From positions 930,001-994,000 of the forward strand of contig NZ_JAJDFX010000002.1 of NCBI RefSeq assembly GCF_024704385.1: 64,000 bases of DNA, read 5' to 3'. Both the position numbers and the translations under genes were made by a program. Under the pieces are notes generated by a model. That model did not search any database. It saw nothing but the letters and a program-made list of their open reading frames with translations, and was not told the DNA's origin. The DNA comes from Cellulomonas sp. P24 (GTDB lineage Bacteria; Actinomycetota; Actinomycetes; Actinomycetales; Cellulomonadaceae). Within the stretch, counting starts at the first letter, position 1, and every line of letters starts with the position of its first letter. Positions 1-6,777 of this stretch are shown here, in pieces.

Positions 1-1
1 C

Positions 2-718
2 GTCCGGGAGATGCCCACTTTTGCCCCTGTGGCGATGGCGGGCAACGCACCACACCTACCCGACGACACACGGTCGCGCACGATCCGCGTGCTACTGCTG
101 CCCGATCTTGAGGGTCGCGTCGAGTCGTCCGACTGGGAAGAGATCGAGATCGACGCCGCGGATCTTGGTGAGGCGCTGGCCCAGTGGGCCGACGAAGTTC
201 GCGACACGGTCCGAACGGTCCGCCCTGTCCTTCCCGAGGGCTGCACGGGCCGCTCAAAGGAGCGCTGGTCACCTATCCGCCGAGTCGCCGAAGCCGCCGG
301 AGGTCACTGGCCCTCGATTGCTGACGACCTGATCCGGCGAGACCTGATCGAGGCACAGATGGATCGGGAGGACGGCATGGTCAGCACCCCGCCGGCAGTC
401 ACGTTGCTGCGCGACATCCACGAGCTGTGGCCCGGAGACGATGACTTCACCCCGACGTCGTGGCTCGTCTCCGAACTCATCCTGCACAACCCGAGAACGT
501 GGGGACCGGACTCGGCCTACGGCAAGGCGCTGACGTTCCAGCGACTCGGCCGGATGCTCGCTCAGGGGTTCAAGGTCAACTCTTCACGGCAGGGCGACGG
601 ACCGCGCGGCTACTACCGCCAGTCGCTCGCGCCGGTATGGCGCCGGATGGGTATGGCCCCCGGTATCGAACCGACGGAACCGACGGAACCTGTCAGACCG
701 ACGGGCGAGAACCGATGA
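2..718 (+). CDS. DUF3631 domain protein, C-terminal part (phage replication)
   Basis: The frame is open to the left edge of the window, so only the last 238 residues are seen and the ATG at 11 is not the real start. The opening residues PTFAPVAMAG, then RSRTIRVLL, the middle block VRPVLPEGCTGR and the end block YGKALTFQRLGRML are typical of the DUF3631 domain, found at the C-terminus of primase/helicase-like replication proteins of actinobacterial phages and integrative elements. The tail is a low-complexity P/T/E stretch. The stop overlaps the next gene in ATGA, indicating translational coupling. The ATPase part lies outside the window. I am confident of the family, less so of the exact enzymatic role. 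Confidence 0.8.
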   Translation, partial: VREMPTFAPVAMAGNAPHLPDDTRSRTIRVLLLPDLEGRVESSDWEEIEIDAADLGEALAQWADEVRDTVRTVRPVLPEGCTGRSKERWSPIRRVAEAAGGHWPSIADDLIRRDLIEAQMDREDGMVSTPPAVTLLRDIHELWPGDDDFTPTSWLVSELILHNPRTWGPDSAYGKALTFQRLGRMLAQGFKVNSSRQGDGPRGYYRQSLAPVWRRMGMAPGIEPTEPTEPVRPTGENR

Positions 719-975
719 CGGCCACGCGGGCGGACCTGCTCGCGCACCTTGAGGTCCTAGCCGATAGCGGTCACCCAGCCGTCTGTCGCACGCACACGCG
801 CGACTGGTGGACCAGTGACGACCTCAGCGACCAGCAGCGTGCAGCCGTCGAGTGCCTGCTCTGCCCGGCGCTCGCACCGTGCCGCGACTACGGGCTTTCC
901 AACCCGAAGGAATGGGGCACGTACGGCGGCCTCACGACTCCCGAGCGGACTACGGCGAAGGGCGGCCGACCGTGA
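715..975 (+). CDS. Phage-type WhiB-like iron-sulfur transcription factor
   Basis: An 86-residue protein with four cysteines at 24, 47, 50 and 56, giving C-x22-C-x2-C-x5-C. The chromosomal WhiB at 16486-16818 has exactly the same spacing. After the last cysteine comes WGTYGGLTTPER, a variant of the WhiB G-W-G-G turn. Such proteins bind a 4Fe-4S cluster and usually act with the principal sigma factor; actinophages carry their own, one of which (TM4 WhiB) is known to interfere with host WhiB2. The C-terminal basic tail is very short (TTAKGGRP), so DNA binding may be weak. The ATG overlaps the DUF3631 stop, and its own stop overlaps the GTG of the next gene. The real start is 715; an in-frame upstream extension is only a shadow of the DUF3631 gene. 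Confidence 0.85.
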   Translation: MTATRADLLAHLEVLADSGHPAVCRTHTRDWWTSDDLSDQQRAAVECLLCPALAPCRDYGLSNPKEWGTYGGLTTPERTTAKGGRP

Positions 976-1193
976 CCACCACGACGCCCGTACGTCTGCG
1001 CACCAGCGGAGCGTCAACCGACTTTGTTGCGTTCGTCGGTGCCGACGAGGTCCGCGTCCGATTCACACAATCCGGCACCCGCGACCAATGGCGCTGCGAC
1101 GCGTGCGGTCGACACCGGTTCAGCACATGCCCGCACGAGGTGGCCGCGCGCGATGCGTGGCGTGACCTCACCAACGAAGGGAACCCGTCATGA
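972..1193 (+). CDS. Small phage protein with C-x2-C and C-x-H metal-binding residues
   Basis: A 73-residue protein starting at GTG 972, overlapping the WhiB stop by GTGA and ending in an ATGA overlap with the next gene, so it is one link in a coupled chain. The first 40 residues are strand-like (VRLRTSG, DEVRVRF). The second half, WRCDACGRHRF followed by STCPHEVAARDAW, has CxxC and CPH residues recalling a small zinc finger of the SWIM kind. Position in a phage early/middle cluster suggests a DNA- or protein-binding accessory role. I do not recognise a named family. Confidence 0.6.
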   Translation: MTTTTPVRLRTSGASTDFVAFVGADEVRVRFTQSGTRDQWRCDACGRHRFSTCPHEVAARDAWRDLTNEGNPS

Positions 1194-1444
1194 CCAACCA
1201 ACTCACGCAGGCCGACGTCGACCGGCTGTATGCCGAGCGGAGGTACGAGGAGATCGAAGACGCCCGCGTGGCCGGACGTCTGAACGTCCTGCTCGGCGGT
1301 GAGGCGCCCATCGACCCGGACCAGACCATCACCGACGCCGACATCACCCGCCTGTACTCCCAGCGTCGCTACGACGAGATCGAGGAGCTGCGCCAGACCG
1401 GGCGGCTCGACCACCTGCTGAACCCCACCACCGAGGAGAACTAA
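1190..1444 (+). CDS. Small phage protein built of two copies of a 30-residue repeat
   Basis: An 84-residue protein made of an internal duplication: residues 8 on read ADVDRLYAERRYEEIEDAR and residues 50 on read ADITRLYSQRRYDEIEELR, each followed by x-GRL-(N/D)-x-LL. Each unit looks like a helix-turn-helix-sized pair of amphipathic helices rich in R, E, Y. The ATG overlaps the previous stop (ATGA). The next gene begins two bases after the stop. No function can be assigned; a short helical repeat with alternating charge would suit a protein-protein or protein-DNA scaffold. Confidence 0.6.
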   Translation: MTNQLTQADVDRLYAERRYEEIEDARVAGRLNVLLGGEAPIDPDQTITDADITRLYSQRRYDEIEELRQTGRLDHLLNPTTEEN

Positions 1445-1446
1445 CC

Positions 1447-2205
1447 ATGCTCAACACCCAGACCATCAATGCCCTGCGCGGCGCGTGCGACGAGTTCAAC
1501 GTCCCCGTCCCGGCCGTCGTGCTCGAGGCCGACGCGTTGAACGACGCGGCCGTGAACCTGCTCAACTCGATCCGCACCGAGACCGCGCCCGACCTGTCCG
1601 GGCTCACAGTCAAGAACCTCAAGGCCACCCACGAGCAGATCGTCGCCCAGGGATCCCACGACGCACGCGAACAGGCCGCCGCCGTCATCGTCCAGCAGGC
1701 CGCATCCCGACTCACGGACGCCTGGCACCAGTCCACCACGGCCCTCATGGCGGCATTCCGTGAGCCGTTCGACCGCGCCGCCGAGATCTTCACCACGAAC
1801 CTCCGCGTCCTCGGCGGGAACGTCGACGCCGTCCGTGCCATCGACGACTCACAGCACGGCGAGTATCGGGCGCTCATGTCGGCGGCCGCTGACCTCGCGA
1901 CCCTCGGCAGGCTCAGGGACGGGCTCGCCTCGGCGCATCTCGCCGACGTCGGAAACCCGAAGATCGAACGCCTCGGACGCGTGCTGACGCTGCCTGACCT
2001 CGACGTCGCTACCCGCAAGATCCCCGCCAAGGTCGAAGGACTCGGACGGTTCGAGCCGAAGTGGTGGGCCGCACTCGCCGGCATCGACGGCGTCGTCATC
2101 AAGTGGCACACGCCCGCCGAGCAGCAGACACACCAGCAGCTCGCCCGCGTGAACGCCGACCACCACGCGTACTCGGCCACCGTGGCACCTGGCGGCAGAA
2201 GGTAA
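1447..2205 (+). CDS. Phage protein of unknown function, helical
   Basis: A 252-residue protein starting 2 bases after the previous stop. The sequence is alanine-rich and almost entirely helix-forming: an N-terminal block around residues 1-90 containing LKATHEQIVAQGSH, then a middle block with WHQSTTALMAAFREPFDRAA, and a C-terminal part with KWWAALAGIDGVVIKW. No cysteine cluster, signal peptide or membrane segment is visible. It closes the coupled chain 2-2205, so it probably belongs to the replication/regulation module rather than to the tail genes that follow. I do not recognise the family. Confidence 0.55.
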   Translation: MLNTQTINALRGACDEFNVPVPAVVLEADALNDAAVNLLNSIRTETAPDLSGLTVKNLKATHEQIVAQGSHDAREQAAAVIVQQAASRLTDAWHQSTTALMAAFREPFDRAAEIFTTNLRVLGGNVDAVRAIDDSQHGEYRALMSAAADLATLGRLRDGLASAHLADVGNPKIERLGRVLTLPDLDVATRKIPAKVEGLGRFEPKWWAALAGIDGVVIKWHTPAEQQTHQQLARVNADHHAYSATVAPGGRR

Positions 2206-2234
2206 AGGCGAAGGTCAAGGGCGGGTCAAGCGGT

Positions 2235-2285
2235 AGGGGGGTAACCCCCTTGCCGCCCCCGTCCGACCCCGCCGGGGAGGGCGGC
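2235..2285 (+). terminator. Two consecutive GC hairpins between phage modules
   Basis: AGGGGG (2235-2240), loop GTAA, CCCCCT (2245-2250) is a perfect six-base stem. It is followed by GCCGCCC (2252-2258) pairing with GGGCGGC (2279-2285). There is no T run. They lie in the 190-base gap between the replication chain and the tape-measure gene, and would separate the two transcripts. A phage DNA-end or deletion junction is an alternative reading of this gap. Confidence 0.4.
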
Positions 2286-2395
2286 GCTAGGTGCGGAGGG
2301 TTCAAAGTTTCCGGAACACCACCAAAGCAAGGTCAATTCTTTACCTTCGCGCCTCGGGTGCGACGGCGACACAGACAATCTAGGAGCTGGTACGT

Positions 2396-5185
2396 ATGGC
2401 AGATCGGTCGATTGCGGTCCGTTTGAGGGCCGAGGTCAGCAACTTCAAGACGGAGATGGCAGCGGCGGCGAAGGCTGCTGAGGCTGTCGGGACGAAGTCT
2501 GAGGCGGCCGGCAAGCAGGCCGACACCGCGTTCTCGAAGATGGCACAGTCGGCTCGGACCAACAAGGACGAGTGGACAAAGGTCGGCACAACTCTGCTGG
2601 CCGTCGGTGCTGTCGTTGCAGCCGGCATCGGCGTGGCCGTCAAGTCGTTCGCCGACTTCTCGGCCGAGATGGCGCAGGTTCGCACCCTGGCGCACGCGTC
2701 GGCTGCGGACATGAACCTGCTGACGGATGCGGCGAAGTCGGCCGGCACGGCGTACGGGTACTCGGCGACGCAGGTGGCTCAGGCCGAGACCGAGTTGGTC
2801 AAGGCTGGCATGTCGGTCAAGGACATCCTTGGCGGTTCGCTTGATGGTGCGCTGACGATCGCTGCGGCGGGTCAGATGGATGTCGCAGACGCCACGACGA
2901 TTGCCGTCTCCGCAATGACCCAATACAACCTCAAGGCGTCGGACACGGCGCATGTCGCTGACGTCCTGGCTGCTGGTGCCGACAAGTCCCTGGCGTCGAT
3001 CTCGAGCCTCGGCGAGGGCATGAAGTACGTCGGCCCCGTCGCCGCGCAGATGGGTGTGAGCGTCGATCAGACGGTTGGCGTCCTGTCGATGTTCTCCCAG
3101 TCCGGTATCGACGCGACCATGGCTGGTACCGGGCTGCGCGGCGTCCTGATGTCGATGACGGCGCCGTCCGCCCTGGCGTCGAAGGCAATGGAGCAGTACG
3201 GCATCAACGTATTCGACGCTCAAGGCAAGTTCATCGGCCTGTCAGGTCTGGCGGGCGAGTTGCACGACAAGCTCGGGAACCTCGACGAGGCGACCCGGTC
3301 GGCGGCGCTCGGTCAGATCTTCGGCAACCGGCAGATCACTGCGGCGCGGATCCTGTACGCCGGCGGTTCGCAGGCCGTGGACCAGTGGACGAACTCGGTG
3401 AACGACGCCGGGTTTGCGTCTCAGCAGGCGTCGGGGAAGCTCGACAGCCTCTCAGGTGACGCACAGAAGATGGGCACCGCGTTCCAGACGTCGCTTGTCG
3501 ACAACGGCAGCGCGGCGAACGGTGTTCTACGTTCCATGACGCAGGAGGTCACGTCAGTCCTCGAGGCGTACAACAAGATGTCTCCGGCGACCCAGGGGAC
3601 GGTGCTGGCGACCGGCGCCCTGGTCTCCGTGGTCGCCCTGGCATCTGGCGGGTTCCTGGTCCTGGCGCCTCGTGTTGTTGAGACTCGGGCTGCGCTAGCA
3701 ACCCTGCGGACCGACATGCCGAAGACTTCGGCCGCGCTGGGTGGTGTCGCCAAGGTCGCTGGCAGGATCTCGATCGCCCTCGCTGCTGCTGCTGTGGCTG
3801 GTGCCGCACTGGACAAGGCGATGACGAAGGACGTCACGGTCTCGCAGTACACGAAGGCGCTCTTGGACCTGAATGGCGCCATGAAGCCCGGATCCGACTC
3901 GATCCTCAAGGACTTCGGCGCCGAGCTGAGGTCACTTGCCGACCCGTCGCTGTCCTACCGGATCGGTGACGTCGTCTCGAACATCGGCAAACTGTGGGGC
4001 GGACCGACCAACACCGAGTTCAACGTGCAGCGCTTCCACGACCTCGGTACGGCGCTCGCGGACCTCTACGCGTCGAACCCGTCGCTTGCCGCGTCGAAGT
4101 TCGCCGAGGTCATGCGGATCACGGGTGGCACCACTGACGAGCTGCTGAAGTTGATGCCGGCGTACCGCGACGCACTGCAAGGCGTGGCGAACGAGAGCAA
4201 GATCGCGGCCTCGAGTCAGACGGACGTGTCAGCGGCATACAAGACGACTACTGGGTCGGTGGACGACCAGATCAAGTCGCTCGGTGACCTGATCTCGGCT
4301 CAGGCGGACGCGGCGGGCGTGGTTCTGTCCGAGCGTGACGCCCAGCGCGGCCTACAGCAGTCGATCGCCGACGCCACGGATTCCCTGAAGAAGAACGGCA
4401 AGACTCTGGACGACACGACGCAGAAGGGTCGCGATAACCAGGCGGCCTTGGATGCGATCGCGAAATCCGGATGGGATCTCGTCAAGGCTATGCAGGCGAA
4501 CGGATCCTCTCAGACGGACATTCAGGCGCAGATGGGCGCCAGTCGCGATGCGTTCATCAATGCGGCCGAGTCAATGGGCATGGGAACCGATGCCGCGAAG
4601 GCTCTAGCCGATCAGCTCGATCTGATTCCTACTGCGGTCCCGACGAAGATTCAGGTCGATTCGAAGAACGCAATGGACCAGATAAGCGCCGTCCTCGACC
4701 TGCTCGACAAGGCCGGAAAGCCTGCCGTTGTCACCGCTGAGACGGTGGGATTCGATTCGGCGCTGAAATACCTGACGGCGATGCAGACGGCCATCAATGG
4801 CATCAACGGGTCGAAGGTCCGGATCGCGATGGGTGCGGGCGGTTCGGGTGGGACGACGTTCGCCGATGGTGGGTTCACGGGCATGGGTGGCAAGTATGAG
4901 CCGGCGGGGATCGTGCACCGTGGCGAGTACGTCATCAAGGCCGAGCAGGTGCCCCGGATCGGTCTTGCGCGCCTCGACTCGCTCAACATGCGCGGGTACG
5001 CATCTGGCGGTCTCGTGGGCGGGTCGGCACCTGCTGGGCCGTCCTCGGTGTCGCTCGCGGGCGCTACGGTCGTCGTGCGGGTCGGTGAGCGCGAGTTCAC
5101 CGGGTACGTCGCCGAGGTCGCCGACAACCGGATCGGTCAAGCCCAGAACCGACGCACGGTCGCGATAAGGAGTGGTGCGCGATGA
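2396..5185 (+). CDS. Phage tail tape-measure protein, TP901 type
   Basis: A 929-residue protein with AGGAG nine bases before the ATG. The N-terminus (about 1-70) is helical; residues 60-85 are a hydrophobic stretch (LLAVGAVVAAGIGVAV). Residues 85-310 match the TP901 core: FADFSAEMAQVRTLAHAS, YGYSATQVAQAETELVKAGM, and SGIDATMAGTGLRGVLMSM. Further hydrophobic segments lie near 405-480, then a long helical region. The end has the usual glycine-rich FADGGFTGMGGKYEPAG, then HRGEYVIKAEQVPRIG. Tape-measure proteins set tail length and help DNA entry; at about 1.5 angstrom per residue this one would fit a tail near 140 nm. The gene is full length and open, but no assembly chaperone (G/GT) gene precedes it and no distal tail gene follows. 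Confidence 0.93.
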   Translation: MADRSIAVRLRAEVSNFKTEMAAAAKAAEAVGTKSEAAGKQADTAFSKMAQSARTNKDEWTKVGTTLLAVGAVVAAGIGVAVKSFADFSAEMAQVRTLAHASAADMNLLTDAAKSAGTAYGYSATQVAQAETELVKAGMSVKDILGGSLDGALTIAAAGQMDVADATTIAVSAMTQYNLKASDTAHVADVLAAGADKSLASISSLGEGMKYVGPVAAQMGVSVDQTVGVLSMFSQSGIDATMAGTGLRGVLMSMTAPSALASKAMEQYGINVFDAQGKFIGLSGLAGELHDKLGNLDEATRSAALGQIFGNRQITAARILYAGGSQAVDQWTNSVNDAGFASQQASGKLDSLSGDAQKMGTAFQTSLVDNGSAANGVLRSMTQEVTSVLEAYNKMSPATQGTVLATGALVSVVALASGGFLVLAPRVVETRAALATLRTDMPKTSAALGGVAKVAGRISIALAAAAVAGAALDKAMTKDVTVSQYTKALLDLNGAMKPGSDSILKDFGAELRSLADPSLSYRIGDVVSNIGKLWGGPTNTEFNVQRFHDLGTALADLYASNPSLAASKFAEVMRITGGTTDELLKLMPAYRDALQGVANESKIAASSQTDVSAAYKTTTGSVDDQIKSLGDLISAQADAAGVVLSERDAQRGLQQSIADATDSLKKNGKTLDDTTQKGRDNQAALDAIAKSGWDLVKAMQANGSSQTDIQAQMGASRDAFINAAESMGMGTDAAKALADQLDLIPTAVPTKIQVDSKNAMDQISAVLDLLDKAGKPAVVTAETVGFDSALKYLTAMQTAINGINGSKVRIAMGAGGSGGTTFADGGFTGMGGKYEPAGIVHRGEYVIKAEQVPRIGLARLDSLNMRGYASGGLVGGSAPAGPSSVSLAGATVVVRVGEREFTGYVAEVADNRIGQAQNRRTVAIRSGAR

Positions 5186-5520
5186 CCTTCGACCCGTACG
5201 TCGACCTACCGGCAGACGACCCGCTCGCGGACGTCATTCGGCGGGTCGCGATCCTCACCGAGGCTGGTGCGGTCGTCAGCTTCTACACCGGGCCACTTGA
5301 TCCGGGGGTGCTCGGCTACCTCGGCCAGGAGGTCCCGGACGGGCCGATGGTCGTCAACTGGGATCCGACCAAGACACCGGAGCAACAGCTCAAGTGCCTC
5401 GATGACGCGTTCGAAGTCATCTTCGGCGGGCTCGAGGTCGACTGGACTTTCGAAGATGTCCCGTACGGCGACACCGGAGCACTCATGACGGTTCGCAAGC
5501 ACGAGATGCGGGCCGAGTAG
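5182..5520 (+). CDS. Small acidic phage protein coupled to tape measure
   Basis: A 112-residue protein whose ATG overlaps the tape-measure stop (ATGA), so the two are almost surely co-translated. It is acidic in the first half (DPYVDLPADDPLADVI), then has VVSFYTGPLDPGVLGYL and ends with TVRKHEMRAE. There is no signal peptide, membrane segment or cysteine pair. In siphophages the gene after the tape measure often encodes a distal tail component, but this is too short for one. I do not recognise the family. A strong hairpin follows 13 bases after its stop. Confidence 0.6.
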   Translation: MTFDPYVDLPADDPLADVIRRVAILTEAGAVVSFYTGPLDPGVLGYLGQEVPDGPMVVNWDPTKTPEQQLKCLDDAFEVIFGGLEVDWTFEDVPYGDTGALMTVRKHEMRAE

Positions 5521-5532
5521 CAGCGCACGGGT

Positions 5533-5573
5533 GTGGCGACGGCGCACGCAGGGGGGCAACGCGCCGTCGCCAC
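5533..5573 (+). terminator. Strong hairpin after the tail genes
   Basis: GTGGCGACGGCGC (5533-5545) and GCGCCGTCGCCAC (5561-5573) are perfect reverse complements of 13 bases around a 15-base loop. It lies 13 bases after the stop at 5520 and is the natural end of the tape-measure transcript. There is no T run, which is common for actinobacterial terminators. Confidence 0.7.
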
Positions 5574-5651
5574 GCGCGAGAGGCTACACGCTGACCGCAT
5601 CCAGCGGGCCATGATCGCCGCCGAACTGGCGACGCTCACCAACGACCATCG

Positions 5652-5673
5652 ACCTTCTCCATCTGGAGAAGGT
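5652..5673. repeat. Near-perfect 22-base palindrome
   Basis: ACCTTCTCCA (5652-5661), two bases TC, then TGGAGAAGGT (5664-5673): ten paired bases on each side. The two-base centre is too short for an RNA loop, so a dimeric protein binding site or recombination site is more likely than a terminator. It lies between convergent genes (5182-5520 plus, 5723-5962 minus) in phage DNA. Confidence 0.5.
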
Positions 5674-5722
5674 GCGCCGACTCGCGCCAACGTCCAGGCG
5701 CTCATGCAGGAGGGGCGATCGA

Positions 5723-5962
5723 CTAGCGGCTCAGGAAGATGGCCCGTTGGATGAGCCCGGTGCAGATCAGCATGACACCGCTGATGGCTAGGGCCGCCGT
5801 GAAGAACCCGGGCGACGAGAGCACCGCAATGAATCCCAGCAGCGCCACGATCCCTCCGGCGTAGAGAGCCCCGTAAGGCGCGTCGAGTCTTGTCGGCTTG
5901 GCCTTCGGTTCCGTCATCTCCCCAGTGAACCACCGAGAGCGCACGCCGATCCGTCTAGCCAC
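5723..5962 (-). CDS. Small two-helix membrane protein
   Basis: Up to 79 residues from GTG 5962, or 64 residues from the internal ATG at 5917 (MTEPKAKPT), which has GGGGAG immediately before it. Two hydrophobic segments, ALYAGGIVALLGFIAVL and FFTAALAISGVMLICTGLI, are separated by a short turn; the C-terminus is RAIFLSR. Size and topology would fit a holin, but the gene runs opposite to the tail genes and no endolysin is present, so this is only a possibility. The start choice is uncertain. It lies downstream of the hairpin at 5979-6016, in the same direction as the two zinc-ribbon-linked genes. Confidence 0.5.
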   Translation of the reverse strand: MARRIGVRSRWFTGEMTEPKAKPTRLDAPYGALYAGGIVALLGFIAVLSSPGFFTAALAISGVMLICTGLIQRAIFLSR

Positions 5963-5978
5963 GACCTAGGGCAAACAC

Positions 5979-6016
5979 AGCGCCGCCCCGGACCCATCCG
6001 GGCCAGGGGCGGCGCT
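5979..6016 (-). terminator. Hairpin ending the minus-strand pair 6599-6037
   Basis: AGCGCCGCCCC (5979-5989) pairs perfectly over 11 bases with GGGGCGGCGCT (6006-6016), with a 16-base loop. On the minus strand the stem is followed by GTGTTTGCCC. It begins 20 bases after the stop at 6037. Confidence 0.65.
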
Positions 6017-6036
6017 CGTGCGTTCAGGGGTACCTG

Positions 6037-6210
6037 TCAGGCTGAGGGCGCGGGATCAAGGATCAGGCCTTCCGTCGCCTCGGCCACCTCGGCCTCGGAT
6101 ACCCCCGAGCGGACGAGAATGAGGTCGAGGGCTCGCACGACCGCCACCGCAACCGATAAATCCTCGACCTCAGCAACCTTCCACCCCATCTCTCGCAGCA
6201 TCTCAAGCAT
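6037..6210 (-). CDS. 57-residue paralog of the C-terminus of the upstream protein
   Basis: Read from ATG 6210 to TGA 6037: it begins MLEMLREMGWKVAEVEDL and continues AVVRALDLILVRSGV. It aligns without gaps to the last 50 residues of the preceding gene (SLGWTVIEVADL, then SVVRSVGVVLVRPNL), so the two arose by duplication. The start overlaps the upstream stop as TGATG, meaning coupled translation. The shared unit looks like strand-helix-strand-helix. Function is unknown; one possibility is a free copy of the domain that can pair with or compete with its longer partner. Confidence 0.65.
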   Translation of the reverse strand: MLEMLREMGWKVAEVEDLSVAVAVVRALDLILVRSGVSEAEVAEATEGLILDPAPSA

Positions 6211-6599
6211 CACGCACCGCCCTCGGGCGAAAGGACCCGCTCAGCGACCCTCACGAGATCGTCGGGGACAAGGTTGGGTCGGACGAGGACGACTCCGACG
6301 GATCGCACGACCGACGCCATGGCCCGCAGGTCGGCGACCTCGATCACGGTCCAGCCCAGGGAGCGGACGACGTCGAGCGGGTCGAGATCCCCGCGGACGG
6401 GCCTGGCCGCGTTCAAGTGCTCCCGGTAGTCGTCGTTCACGTCACGAATCGGCGCGTGAGGCGTGGTGGCGCGGCAGGTCGCGCACCTCAGGCGGCGCTC
6501 ACCGGCCCCACCGACGTAACTCCGCTTGACGGTGCGAACCGTCCCGCACTCGCAGCACAGGGCGTCGATGACGGTTCCGGGTTCGGCTGTGGTGCTCAT
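6210..6599 (-). CDS. Phage zinc-ribbon protein, DUF6315-like
   Basis: A 129-residue protein from ATG 6599 with GAGAGGA upstream on the minus strand. Residues 15-45 form a zinc ribbon: CCECGTVRTVKR, then RRLRCATCRATTPHA. After it come RDVNDDYREHLNAA and the C-terminal unit (LGWTVIEVADLRAM) duplicated in the next gene. The ribbon and its spacing resemble DUF6315 proteins of actinophages, an assignment made from memory of the family. Longer upstream readings of this frame overlap the RDD gene and were not used. Likely a DNA- or RNA-binding accessory protein. Confidence 0.6.
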   Translation of the reverse strand: MSTTAEPGTVIDALCCECGTVRTVKRSYVGGAGERRLRCATCRATTPHAPIRDVNDDYREHLNAARPVRGDLDPLDVVRSLGWTVIEVADLRAMASVVRSVGVVLVRPNLVPDDLVRVAERVLSPEGGA

Positions 6600-6722
6600 G
6601 GTGCTGGTCCTCTCGGTGGTGAAGCCGCGTTTCGTGGCAAGGATATTTGCCCCTACAGCGCTCCGACCCGACCTGCGAGGAGACACACTATGCACAGCGC
6701 ATAGGCGGTCATAGACGACCGA

Positions 6723-6759
6723 TACCCTGCCACAGCGGCACCGTCGCCGTGGCAGGGTA
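6723..6759. terminator. Hairpin at the phage/chromosome border
   Basis: TACCCTGCCAC (6723-6733) and GTGGCAGGGTA (6749-6759) are perfect complements over 11 bases with a 15-base loop. It lies 19 bases before the RDD gene start and is followed by AAGGAGG. Its position could mean a transcription barrier between mobile and chromosomal DNA, a 5' UTR structure for the RDD gene, or part of an attachment site. Confidence 0.5.
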
Positions 6760-6777
6760 GGCGCAAGGAGGTGGGCC

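What the first reader, a model, noticed from the sequence alone, without database searches (positions are those of the whole stretch)
1..6760. Phage-derived element with a WhiB, replication protein and lone tape measure
An intact 929-residue tape-measure gene and a coupled small protein follow replication genes directly, without any packaging, head or other tail gene. Intact reading frames suggest selection rather than decay. A phage satellite carrying its own tape measure and WhiB could alter the tails or transcription of a helper phage; a simple deletion remnant is the plainer alternative.
Basis: inference. Interest (0 to 1): 0.6.

Follow-up and report, generated by a model that had tools for sequence, protein, structure and literature searches.

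The report
Phage satellite carrying lone tape measure
A 9-kilobase mobile element in this bacterium carries, as its only recognisable virus-particle gene, the protein that sets the length of a phage's tail, and related elements have picked up such a gene again and again, which suggests that these genetic hitchhikers rebuild the tails of the phages they ride on.

Summary
In detail: an intact 929-codon tape-measure gene (2396-5185) with an overlapping 112-codon gene follows replication genes, with no recognised packaging, head or other tail gene. To the left lie an integrase and then chromosome, no prophage. The element is complete, about 9.2 kb, and sits between two genes that are neighbours in 15 of 16 relatives' loci, with a 14/16 att-like repeat. 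A TMP-less relative sits at rpoD in the same genome. Of 33 loci with a related replication protein, 7 carry a TMP and no recognised capsid, portal or large-terminase gene, 5 a capsid protein alone, 4 a terminase-portal-capsid set; 5 carry a small terminase and 3 more a protein that Pfam calls small terminase and PHROGs minor tail protein. One TMP-bearing relative is a circular 10.35-kb metagenome contig. Nine such TMPs scatter through a tree of phage TMPs (at least 6 changes forced), so TMP was recruited repeatedly. Best reading: an actinobacterial phage satellite whose TMP is built into a helper's tails, a mechanism shown in March 2026 for Vibrio PLE satellites (PMC12987554). Helper dependence and tail incorporation are untested here. 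New variant of a known kind.

The parts
1..718 (+). 3' part of the replication protein gene (DUF3631/AAA, 425 aa). The gene starts at -559. Left of the window lie, in window coordinates: attL about -2473 to -2460, tyrosine integrase -2344 to -1436 (+), S102 -1181 to -873 (+), S106 -876 to -556 (+)
   Evidence: PF12307 1.9e-19, integrase PF00589 8.8e-25; S102 phrog_2842 2.2e-11; gene calls; four REP relatives 70-80% identical; att
715..975 (+). WhiB-like regulator, 86 aa
   Evidence: PF02467 5.1e-10; relatives in other elements, after REP in several
972..1193 (+). Z73, small Cys/His protein
   Evidence: ORF; relatives; likeness to an 84-aa protein of element L158 seen by eye
1190..1444 (+). P84, two tandem copies of one motif (by eye); weak match to the C-terminus of head scaffolding family phrog_2592 (E 0.055)
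1447..2205 (+). P252, unknown, directly upstream of TMP
   Evidence: single-sequence model uninformative
2396..5185 (+). tail tape measure protein (TMP), 929 aa
   Evidence: PF10145 3e-51, phrog_1533 8e-86
5182..5520 (+). P112, overlaps the TMP stop; unknown
5723..5962 (-). small membrane-like protein (by eye)
6037..6213 (-). R58, right-end small protein
6210..6599 (-). R129, right-end protein shared with the second element of this genome (41%)
6720..6733 (.). attR
   Evidence: empty-site comparison with a same-genus genome

Best explanation
A complete integrative phage satellite of Actinobacteria. Shown by sequence: insertion at a precise site between the SpoIIM-like and RDD genes, an integrase, a replication protein, a WhiB, and one virion gene, an intact TMP. 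Inferred: when a siphophage infects, the element excises, replicates with its DUF3631 protein and is packaged by the helper. Its TMP takes the place of the helper's TMP inside the helper's tail tube. The satellite particle so gets a tail of satellite-set length, and possibly satellite-set DNA entry into the next cell, while normal helper tails may be reduced. P84, P252 and P112 would be auxiliary assembly factors.
For: Ends and empty site; integrase and replication core conserved at other sites. 7 of 33 loci with this replication family carry a TMP and no capsid, portal or large-terminase gene; two of the seven (L052, L064) also have a small terminase upstream, and L055 a protein related to one that Pfam calls small terminase (Terminase_7) but itself called minor tail protein by PHROGs. 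Relatives with large terminase, portal and capsid genes place the backbone among satellites. The circular 10,351-bp contig L090 carries REP, TMP and a serine integrase. Nine TMPs without recognised tail neighbours need 9 label changes among 22 phage or prophage TMPs, at least 6 forced by well-supported branches; a tenth (L084) belongs to another TMP family and groups with the one phage of that family in the tree, a Microbacterium phage. A protein family, F197, occurs in 7 elements of this kind and in no phage or prophage stretch held. Precedent: PLE TMPs replace the helper TMP in chimeric tails, and deleting tmp cuts transduction by 96-99.9% (PMC12987554, sections 8 and 9 read).
Against: No helper, induction, packaging or particle was observed. 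No small terminase was found in this element; cos and pac were not sought. The genome has no second PhageMin_Tail protein and no PF04860 portal, so no resident helper of those types. PLEs carry a tail chaperone beside the TMP; none was recognised here. One of the seven TMPs (L064) is frame-split, and L064 also has a tail/minor-head-like protein. The own TMP is a long branch, so its exact sister is unsure. Of the four extra lone-TMP loci, two lie near contig ends, and in two (L159, L164) the protein after the TMP matches weakly a PHROG labelled terminase large subunit. L055 ends in its TMP at the contig end.
Confidence: 0.62

Rival explanations
1. The TMP is a defence gene: expressed on infection, it competes with the invading phage's own TMP and spoils tail assembly, protecting the host without any satellite transfer.
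For: Blocking tail assembly is an established defence (Tai, PMC11364771, passages; Rta, PMC12987554). No packaging gene was recognised in this element.
Against: Rta is an 80-aa protein, not a TMP; the make-up of Tai proteins was not seen in the passages. Two TMP-bearing relatives also carry a small terminase, which defence alone does not need. The TMPs keep phage-like length, and their second halves still align with phage TMPs, though at only 25-42% in seven of eight.
Confidence: 0.15
2. Deletion remnant: a prophage that lost all head, packaging and tail genes except its tape measure.
For: Lone late gene beside early genes; P84, P252 and P112 have no clear family; one relative's TMP is broken.
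Against: Ends with an empty site; the same backbone with TMP and no capsid gene in unrelated genomes; TMPs of separate phage origins; no recognised fragments of neighbouring late genes; the REP has one weak match in 50,697 phage records, so it is not that of a known phage lineage.
Confidence: 0.12
3. A mobilisable plasmid-like integrative element (AICE type) that carries the TMP as accidental cargo.
For: Distant DUF3631 relatives (about 30%) lie in elements with a different gene content that looks plasmid-like by eye, and in three plasmid records, two Streptomyces and one Nonomuraea.
Against: No FtsK/Tra-type transfer gene among the ten genes scanned; close relatives carry packaging and capsid genes instead; repeated capture of the same kind of gene is unlikely to be accidental.
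Confidence: 0.06

Closest known systems
Vibrio cholerae PLE satellites with chimeric tails (PMC12987554, Nature 2026; sections 8-9 and passages read)
   Same: Integrated satellite with its own TMP and no complete tail module; the legend of Extended Data Fig. 10 reports putative tmp genes in PLE-like elements and a sampling of cf-PICIs.
   Different: Other host phylum; PhageMin_Tail-type TMP; DUF3631 replication protein and WhiB; no recognised tail chaperone or hub; helper unknown; TMP function untested. Sequence homology to PLE proteins was not tested.
Capsid-forming PICIs and the candidate PICIs of Mycobacterium (PMC10654092, passages)
   Same: Small integrative elements; relatives with the same replication family carry terminase, portal and capsid genes (L061, L086-L088).
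   Different: This element has no capsid gene; a search that asks for integrase plus capsid gene, as in that paper, would miss it.
SaPIbov5 with Ccm (PMC8569155, passages)
   Same: A satellite homologue of one helper structural protein re-shapes the virion; relatives with a capsid protein but no portal or large terminase (L053, L059, L062, L089, L130) look like this.
   Different: Here the protein is the tail ruler, not the capsid protein.
MulchRoom and MiniFlayer Streptomyces satellites (PMC10690885, passages)
   Same: Satellites of phages of Actinobacteria.
   Different: They carry capsid and packaging genes and no recognised primase; the text has no occurrence of 'tape measure'.

Membership tests
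Phage satellite (general) | Integrated element with integrase and attachment repeats | tested here: met
   integrase; empty site and imperfect 14/16 repeat
Phage satellite (general) | Own replication or regulation genes | tested here: met
   DUF3631 protein and WhiB by homology only
Phage satellite (general) | Lacks genes for a complete particle | tested here: met
   only TMP recognised
Phage satellite (general) | Induced and mobilised by a helper phage | not testable with these tools
   needs infection experiments
Phage satellite (general) | Packaging-redirecting gene or site (terS, cos, pac) | tested here: inconclusive
   none found in this element; small terminase in 5 of 33 related loci and a Pfam/PHROG-disputed protein in 3 more; cos and pac not sought
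PLE-type chimeric-tail satellite | Own TMP gene | tested here: met
PLE-type chimeric-tail satellite | Tail assembly chaperone beside TMP | tested here: not met
   no chaperone family hit for P252, P84 or P112; a diverged one is not excluded
PLE-type chimeric-tail satellite | TMP incorporated in satellite virions | not testable with these tools
   needs purified particles
cf-PICI | Own capsid and packaging genes | tested here: not met
AICE | FtsK/Tra-type translocase (defining feature recalled) | tested here: not met
   no such Pfam hit among ten genes of the element; three right-end genes were scanned with PHROGs only
Complete prophage | Head, packaging and tail modules | tested here: not met
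   left flank read to C2:905001; genes named by eye there, part of the printout was cut

The most novel reading that the evidence does not exclude
One actinobacterial satellite backbone (DUF3631 replication protein, often with WhiB) has a modular 'one helper part' slot: some copies replace the helper's tail ruler (TMP), others its capsid protein, others its small terminase. The tail-ruler version arose at least six times by capture of TMPs from siphophages. The captured TMP fixes tail length and DNA entry of the satellite particle, so the satellite chooses its own route into the next cell while borrowing everything else.
Probability: 0.4. Interest if true: 0.8.

Novelty: new variant of a known kind. 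Interest (0 to 1): 0.64.

Why it matters
That satellites build their own tape measure into stolen tails was reported only in March 2026, in Vibrio, and its benefit was left open (PMC12987554, section 9). An unrelated bacterial phylum with repeated, separate TMP captures on compact 9-10 kb elements would show that selection favours owning the tail ruler. It also gives natural pairs of satellite and phage TMPs with which the benefit (tail length, DNA entry, escape from exclusion, harm to the helper) can be tested. Definitions of satellites that require a capsid gene miss these elements.

Tried and rejected
Scaffolding idea: P84 and a 118-aa protein of the circle L090 both match the C-terminus of phrog_2592 (E 0.055 and 0.0008). 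A profile from four phage scaffolding C-termini did not match P84 and a motif scan of the loci found only L090 (that scan left out the window's own element), so capsid redirection by P84 is a weak lead. The likeness of this motif to actinophage scaffolds is recalled, not from a call.

Length idea: nine TMPs without tail neighbours (831-981 aa) are shorter than 15 prophage TMPs (887-1448 aa) of the family, one-sided Mann-Whitney p 0.0067, but the rows are not independent and many prophage TMPs are equally short. These nine are not the nine of the tree: L084 is in, L055 (990 aa, contig end) is out; the frame-split L064 and the split prophage TMP of L165 were left out of both.

Name check done last: three proteins that my 'TERS7' profile called small terminase (L031, L054, L055), and the one in L158, score as minor tail protein phrog_226 in PHROGs, while Pfam has L031 and L158 over the cut-off of Terminase_7. 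I count them apart.

P112 has a sub-threshold Pfam match to PEP mutase (19.1 bits, cut-off 31.5), not believed. Single-sequence models of P112 and P252 were poor (pLDDT 43 and 46), so no fold search was made. P84 has no match among phage records at E 1. P252, P84 and P112 have no relative among 20,627 ORFs of the loci held then. A TMP search of viral contigs gave one distant hit.

The 12-bp exact repeat at C2:927617 and 936654 was first taken for att and set aside after the empty-site comparison.

Mutual exclusion of TMP and capsid-side genes (0 of 33 with both) is not statistically strong with 7 and 10 cases, several on cut contigs.
Full report
What is there. The window is G000:C2:930001-994000 of a 4.42-Mb genome; the named relatives with the closest replication proteins are Actinotalea species. 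Left of the window lie the 5' part of the replication gene, two small genes and a tyrosine integrase, and then ordinary chromosome: a SpoIIM-like gene and, further left, genes such as secA (named by eye). There is no prophage.

Boundaries. In 15 of 16 relatives' loci that hold the RDD gene, the SpoIIM-like gene lies directly beside it in the opposite direction (the sixteenth, L114, gave no match). In the same-genus genome G156 the left flank aligns up to C2:927540 and the right flank from C2:936720, with a 14-base overlap. The two ends of the element carry ACGACCG(T/A)TACC(T/C)TGC, and the uninterrupted site in three other genomes printed (L103, L104, L106) matches the right copy. The element is therefore about 9.2 kb, window -2473 to 6733. 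Its GC content is 66.6% against 73% in the flanks.

A second element in the same genome, C2:3753658-3762824, is bounded by a 20-base exact repeat that is the 3' end of an rpoD-like gene. It shares integrase (68%), S102 (75%), a distant REP (31%), WhiB (39%) and the right-end gene R129 (41%) and has no TMP.

The family. REP relatives at 50% identity or more occur in Actinotalea, Georgenia, Arthrobacter, Microbacterium, Cryobacterium, Actinomyces, Rhodococcus, Mycobacterium and others (38 loci in all, 13 viral contigs; 4 of 396 and 5 of 394 genomes at E 1e-60, own genome included in both). Among 50,697 phage records there is one weak hit, and among 72,556 plasmids three at 30-31%. I scanned 35 loci with seed profiles; 33 have REP at E 1e-90 or better, the other two being L006 and L067. 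TMP: own (L005), L030 (Actinotalea fermentans), L052 (Georgenia satyanarayanai), L055 (Arthrobacter Leaf137, contig end), L064 (Cryobacterium, frame-split), L084 (Microbacterium bovistercoris), L090 (metagenome circle), 7 of 33. The TMPs of L052, L055, L064, L084 and L090 were also named by PHROGs, those of the window and L030 by Pfam. A weak 573-aa TMP-like protein in L032 (phrog_58 2e-5) is not counted. Capsid protein without large terminase and portal: L053, L059, L062, L089, L130, 5 of 33, each named by PHROGs. Large terminase, portal and capsid profiles together: L061, L086, L087, L088, 4 of 33; L085 has the large terminase only by these profiles. PHROGs confirmed the names on L061 (all three), L086 and L085 (terminase) and L088 (portal). 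Small terminase: L032, L051, L052, L062, L064, 5 of 33. A further protein family in L031, L054 and L055 is small terminase by Pfam (tested on L031) but minor tail protein by PHROGs. TMP together with capsid protein, large terminase or portal: 0 of 33. Some contigs are short, so absences may be cut ends.

'Lone' was checked with PHROGs for ten genes of L048 (the same locus as L030), six of L052, four of L084, five of L090 and three of L064 beside the TMP, not for every gene. Apart from L052's small terminase and L064's small terminase and tail/minor-head-like 235-aa protein, the hits were a repressor, a WhiB, an HNH, a DNA-binding protein and one weak scaffolding match. L064 is therefore not strictly lone.

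Circles. Contigs L089 (capsid protein) and L090 (TMP) each have exact 127-base terminal repeats, that is 8,293-bp and 10,351-bp circles or head-to-tail concatemers. This shows free or tandem DNA, not packaging.

Where the TMPs come from. The own TMP has relatives at E 1e-30 in 24 of 220 other family genomes. I fetched 20 loci from 19 of these 24 genomes; G003 was already held as L030, and G168, G186, G194 and G208 were not fetched. In 16 of the 20 the TMP lies in a longer phage-like series: 13 have recognised tail terminator, major tail protein or chaperone genes upstream, L172 only a tail-tip-like gene downstream, L174 and L175 none recognised. In four it stands without them: L158, L159, L164 and L176, the last two beside an integrase. 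L158 and L159 are near contig ends. Their neighbours were checked in part with Pfam and PHROGs. L158 has the disputed Terminase_7/phrog_226 protein. The ~300-aa protein after the TMP in L159 and L164, and its relative in L032, matches weakly phrog_13702, labelled terminase large subunit (5e-5, 3e-9 and 5e-6). A 137-aa DNA-binding protein of L176 has among its hits a small terminase family (5e-5).

In a 31-row tree nine TMPs without recognised tail neighbours (own, L048, L052, L055, L090, L158, L159, L164, L176) need nine label changes, at least six forced by well-supported branches; shuffled labels need 7.9 on average, so the label is not clustered at all. Such TMPs thus seem to have arisen many times. 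The direction of each change is not proved, and the own TMP is a long branch. The M. bovistercoris TMP (L084) belongs to another TMP family and groups with the one phage of that family included (Microbacterium phage Quenya, 49.6%); a faecal phage record is closer still (62.8%). Against the phage TMPs chosen for comparison, seven of eight are 44-72% identical in the first half and 25-42% in the second; L084 is lowest in its first quarter (27%) and 52-68% after it.

Associated proteins. Family F197 occurs in L159, L176, L032, L055 (twice), L064, L054 and L084 and in none of the prophage or phage stretches held. The ~300-aa protein mentioned above, with a SEC-C-like end, lies directly downstream of the TMP or TMP-like gene in L159, L164 and L032. 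The element under study has neither; P252 stands upstream of its TMP and P112 downstream.

Mechanism. The length of the TMP gene is proportional to tail length (PMC3271669, passages). In Vibrio PLEs the satellite's TMP replaces the helper's in the particle, tails are about 10 nm shorter, and loss of tmp cuts transduction by 96-99.9% (PMC12987554, sections 8-9). The same reading fits here: integration site, replication gene and TMP are shown by sequence; induction by a helper, packaging and incorporation are inferred. The genome holds no second PhageMin_Tail protein and no PF04860 portal, so the helper is probably an infecting phage, or a prophage of another type.

Known or new. [quoted passage not shown] 10 only, so the hosts are unknown to me). 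My eight paper searches showed no actinobacterial satellite with a TMP in their listings; the library lacks most subscription journals. Candidate PICIs of Mycobacterium were defined by integrase plus capsid gene (PMC10654092, passages), which would miss this type. A survey of actinobacterial prophages notes that elements under 15 kb could be satellites and that experimental validation in actinobacteria lags (PMC10023795, passages). Hence: a new variant of a known kind, with a modular backbone and repeated TMP capture as the new part.

Noticed in passing
genome C2:3753658-3762824 (L006): Second element of the same backbone in this genome, at the 3' end of an rpoD-like gene with a 20-bp exact repeat; carries a lipoprotein-like gene and other unknown genes, no TMP.
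   Followed up: partly
L089 (8,293-bp circle), L053, L059, L062, L130: Elements with a related replication protein and an HK97-type capsid protein but no recognised portal or large terminase, recalling SaPIbov5 Ccm.
   Followed up: partly
L032:8851-9441, L055, L064, L054, L084, L159, L176: F197, an unknown ~200-aa family found in such elements and in no phage or prophage stretch held; candidate partner of the satellite TMP.
   Followed up: partly
L159:7139-8044, L164:9979-10929, L032:6226-7128: ~300-aa protein with SEC-C-like C-terminus directly downstream of lone TMP or TMP-like genes; weak match to phrog_13702, labelled terminase large subunit.
   Followed up: partly
L031:9996-10358, L054:18812-19198, L055:13861-14298, L158:1978-2340: One protein family named small terminase by Pfam (PF25673) and minor tail protein by PHROGs (phrog_226); the label conflict itself deserves a look.
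   Followed up: partly
L029, L031, L064: Versions with a serine integrase appear to lie beside tad/flp pilus genes in three genomes (read by eye from gene lists).
   Followed up: no
window 1190-1444: P84 looks like two tandem copies of one ~33-residue motif (AD/DxxRLYxxRRYxEIExxRxxGRLxxLL) with a weak scaffolding-protein match.
   Followed up: partly
genome C2:927617 and 936654 (window -2383 and 6654): 12-bp exact direct repeat TACAGCGCTCCG just inside both ends of the element; possibly an integrase arm site.
   Followed up: no
L130:9213-10424: The search row for this replication-protein relative reports two in-frame TGA codons.
   Followed up: no
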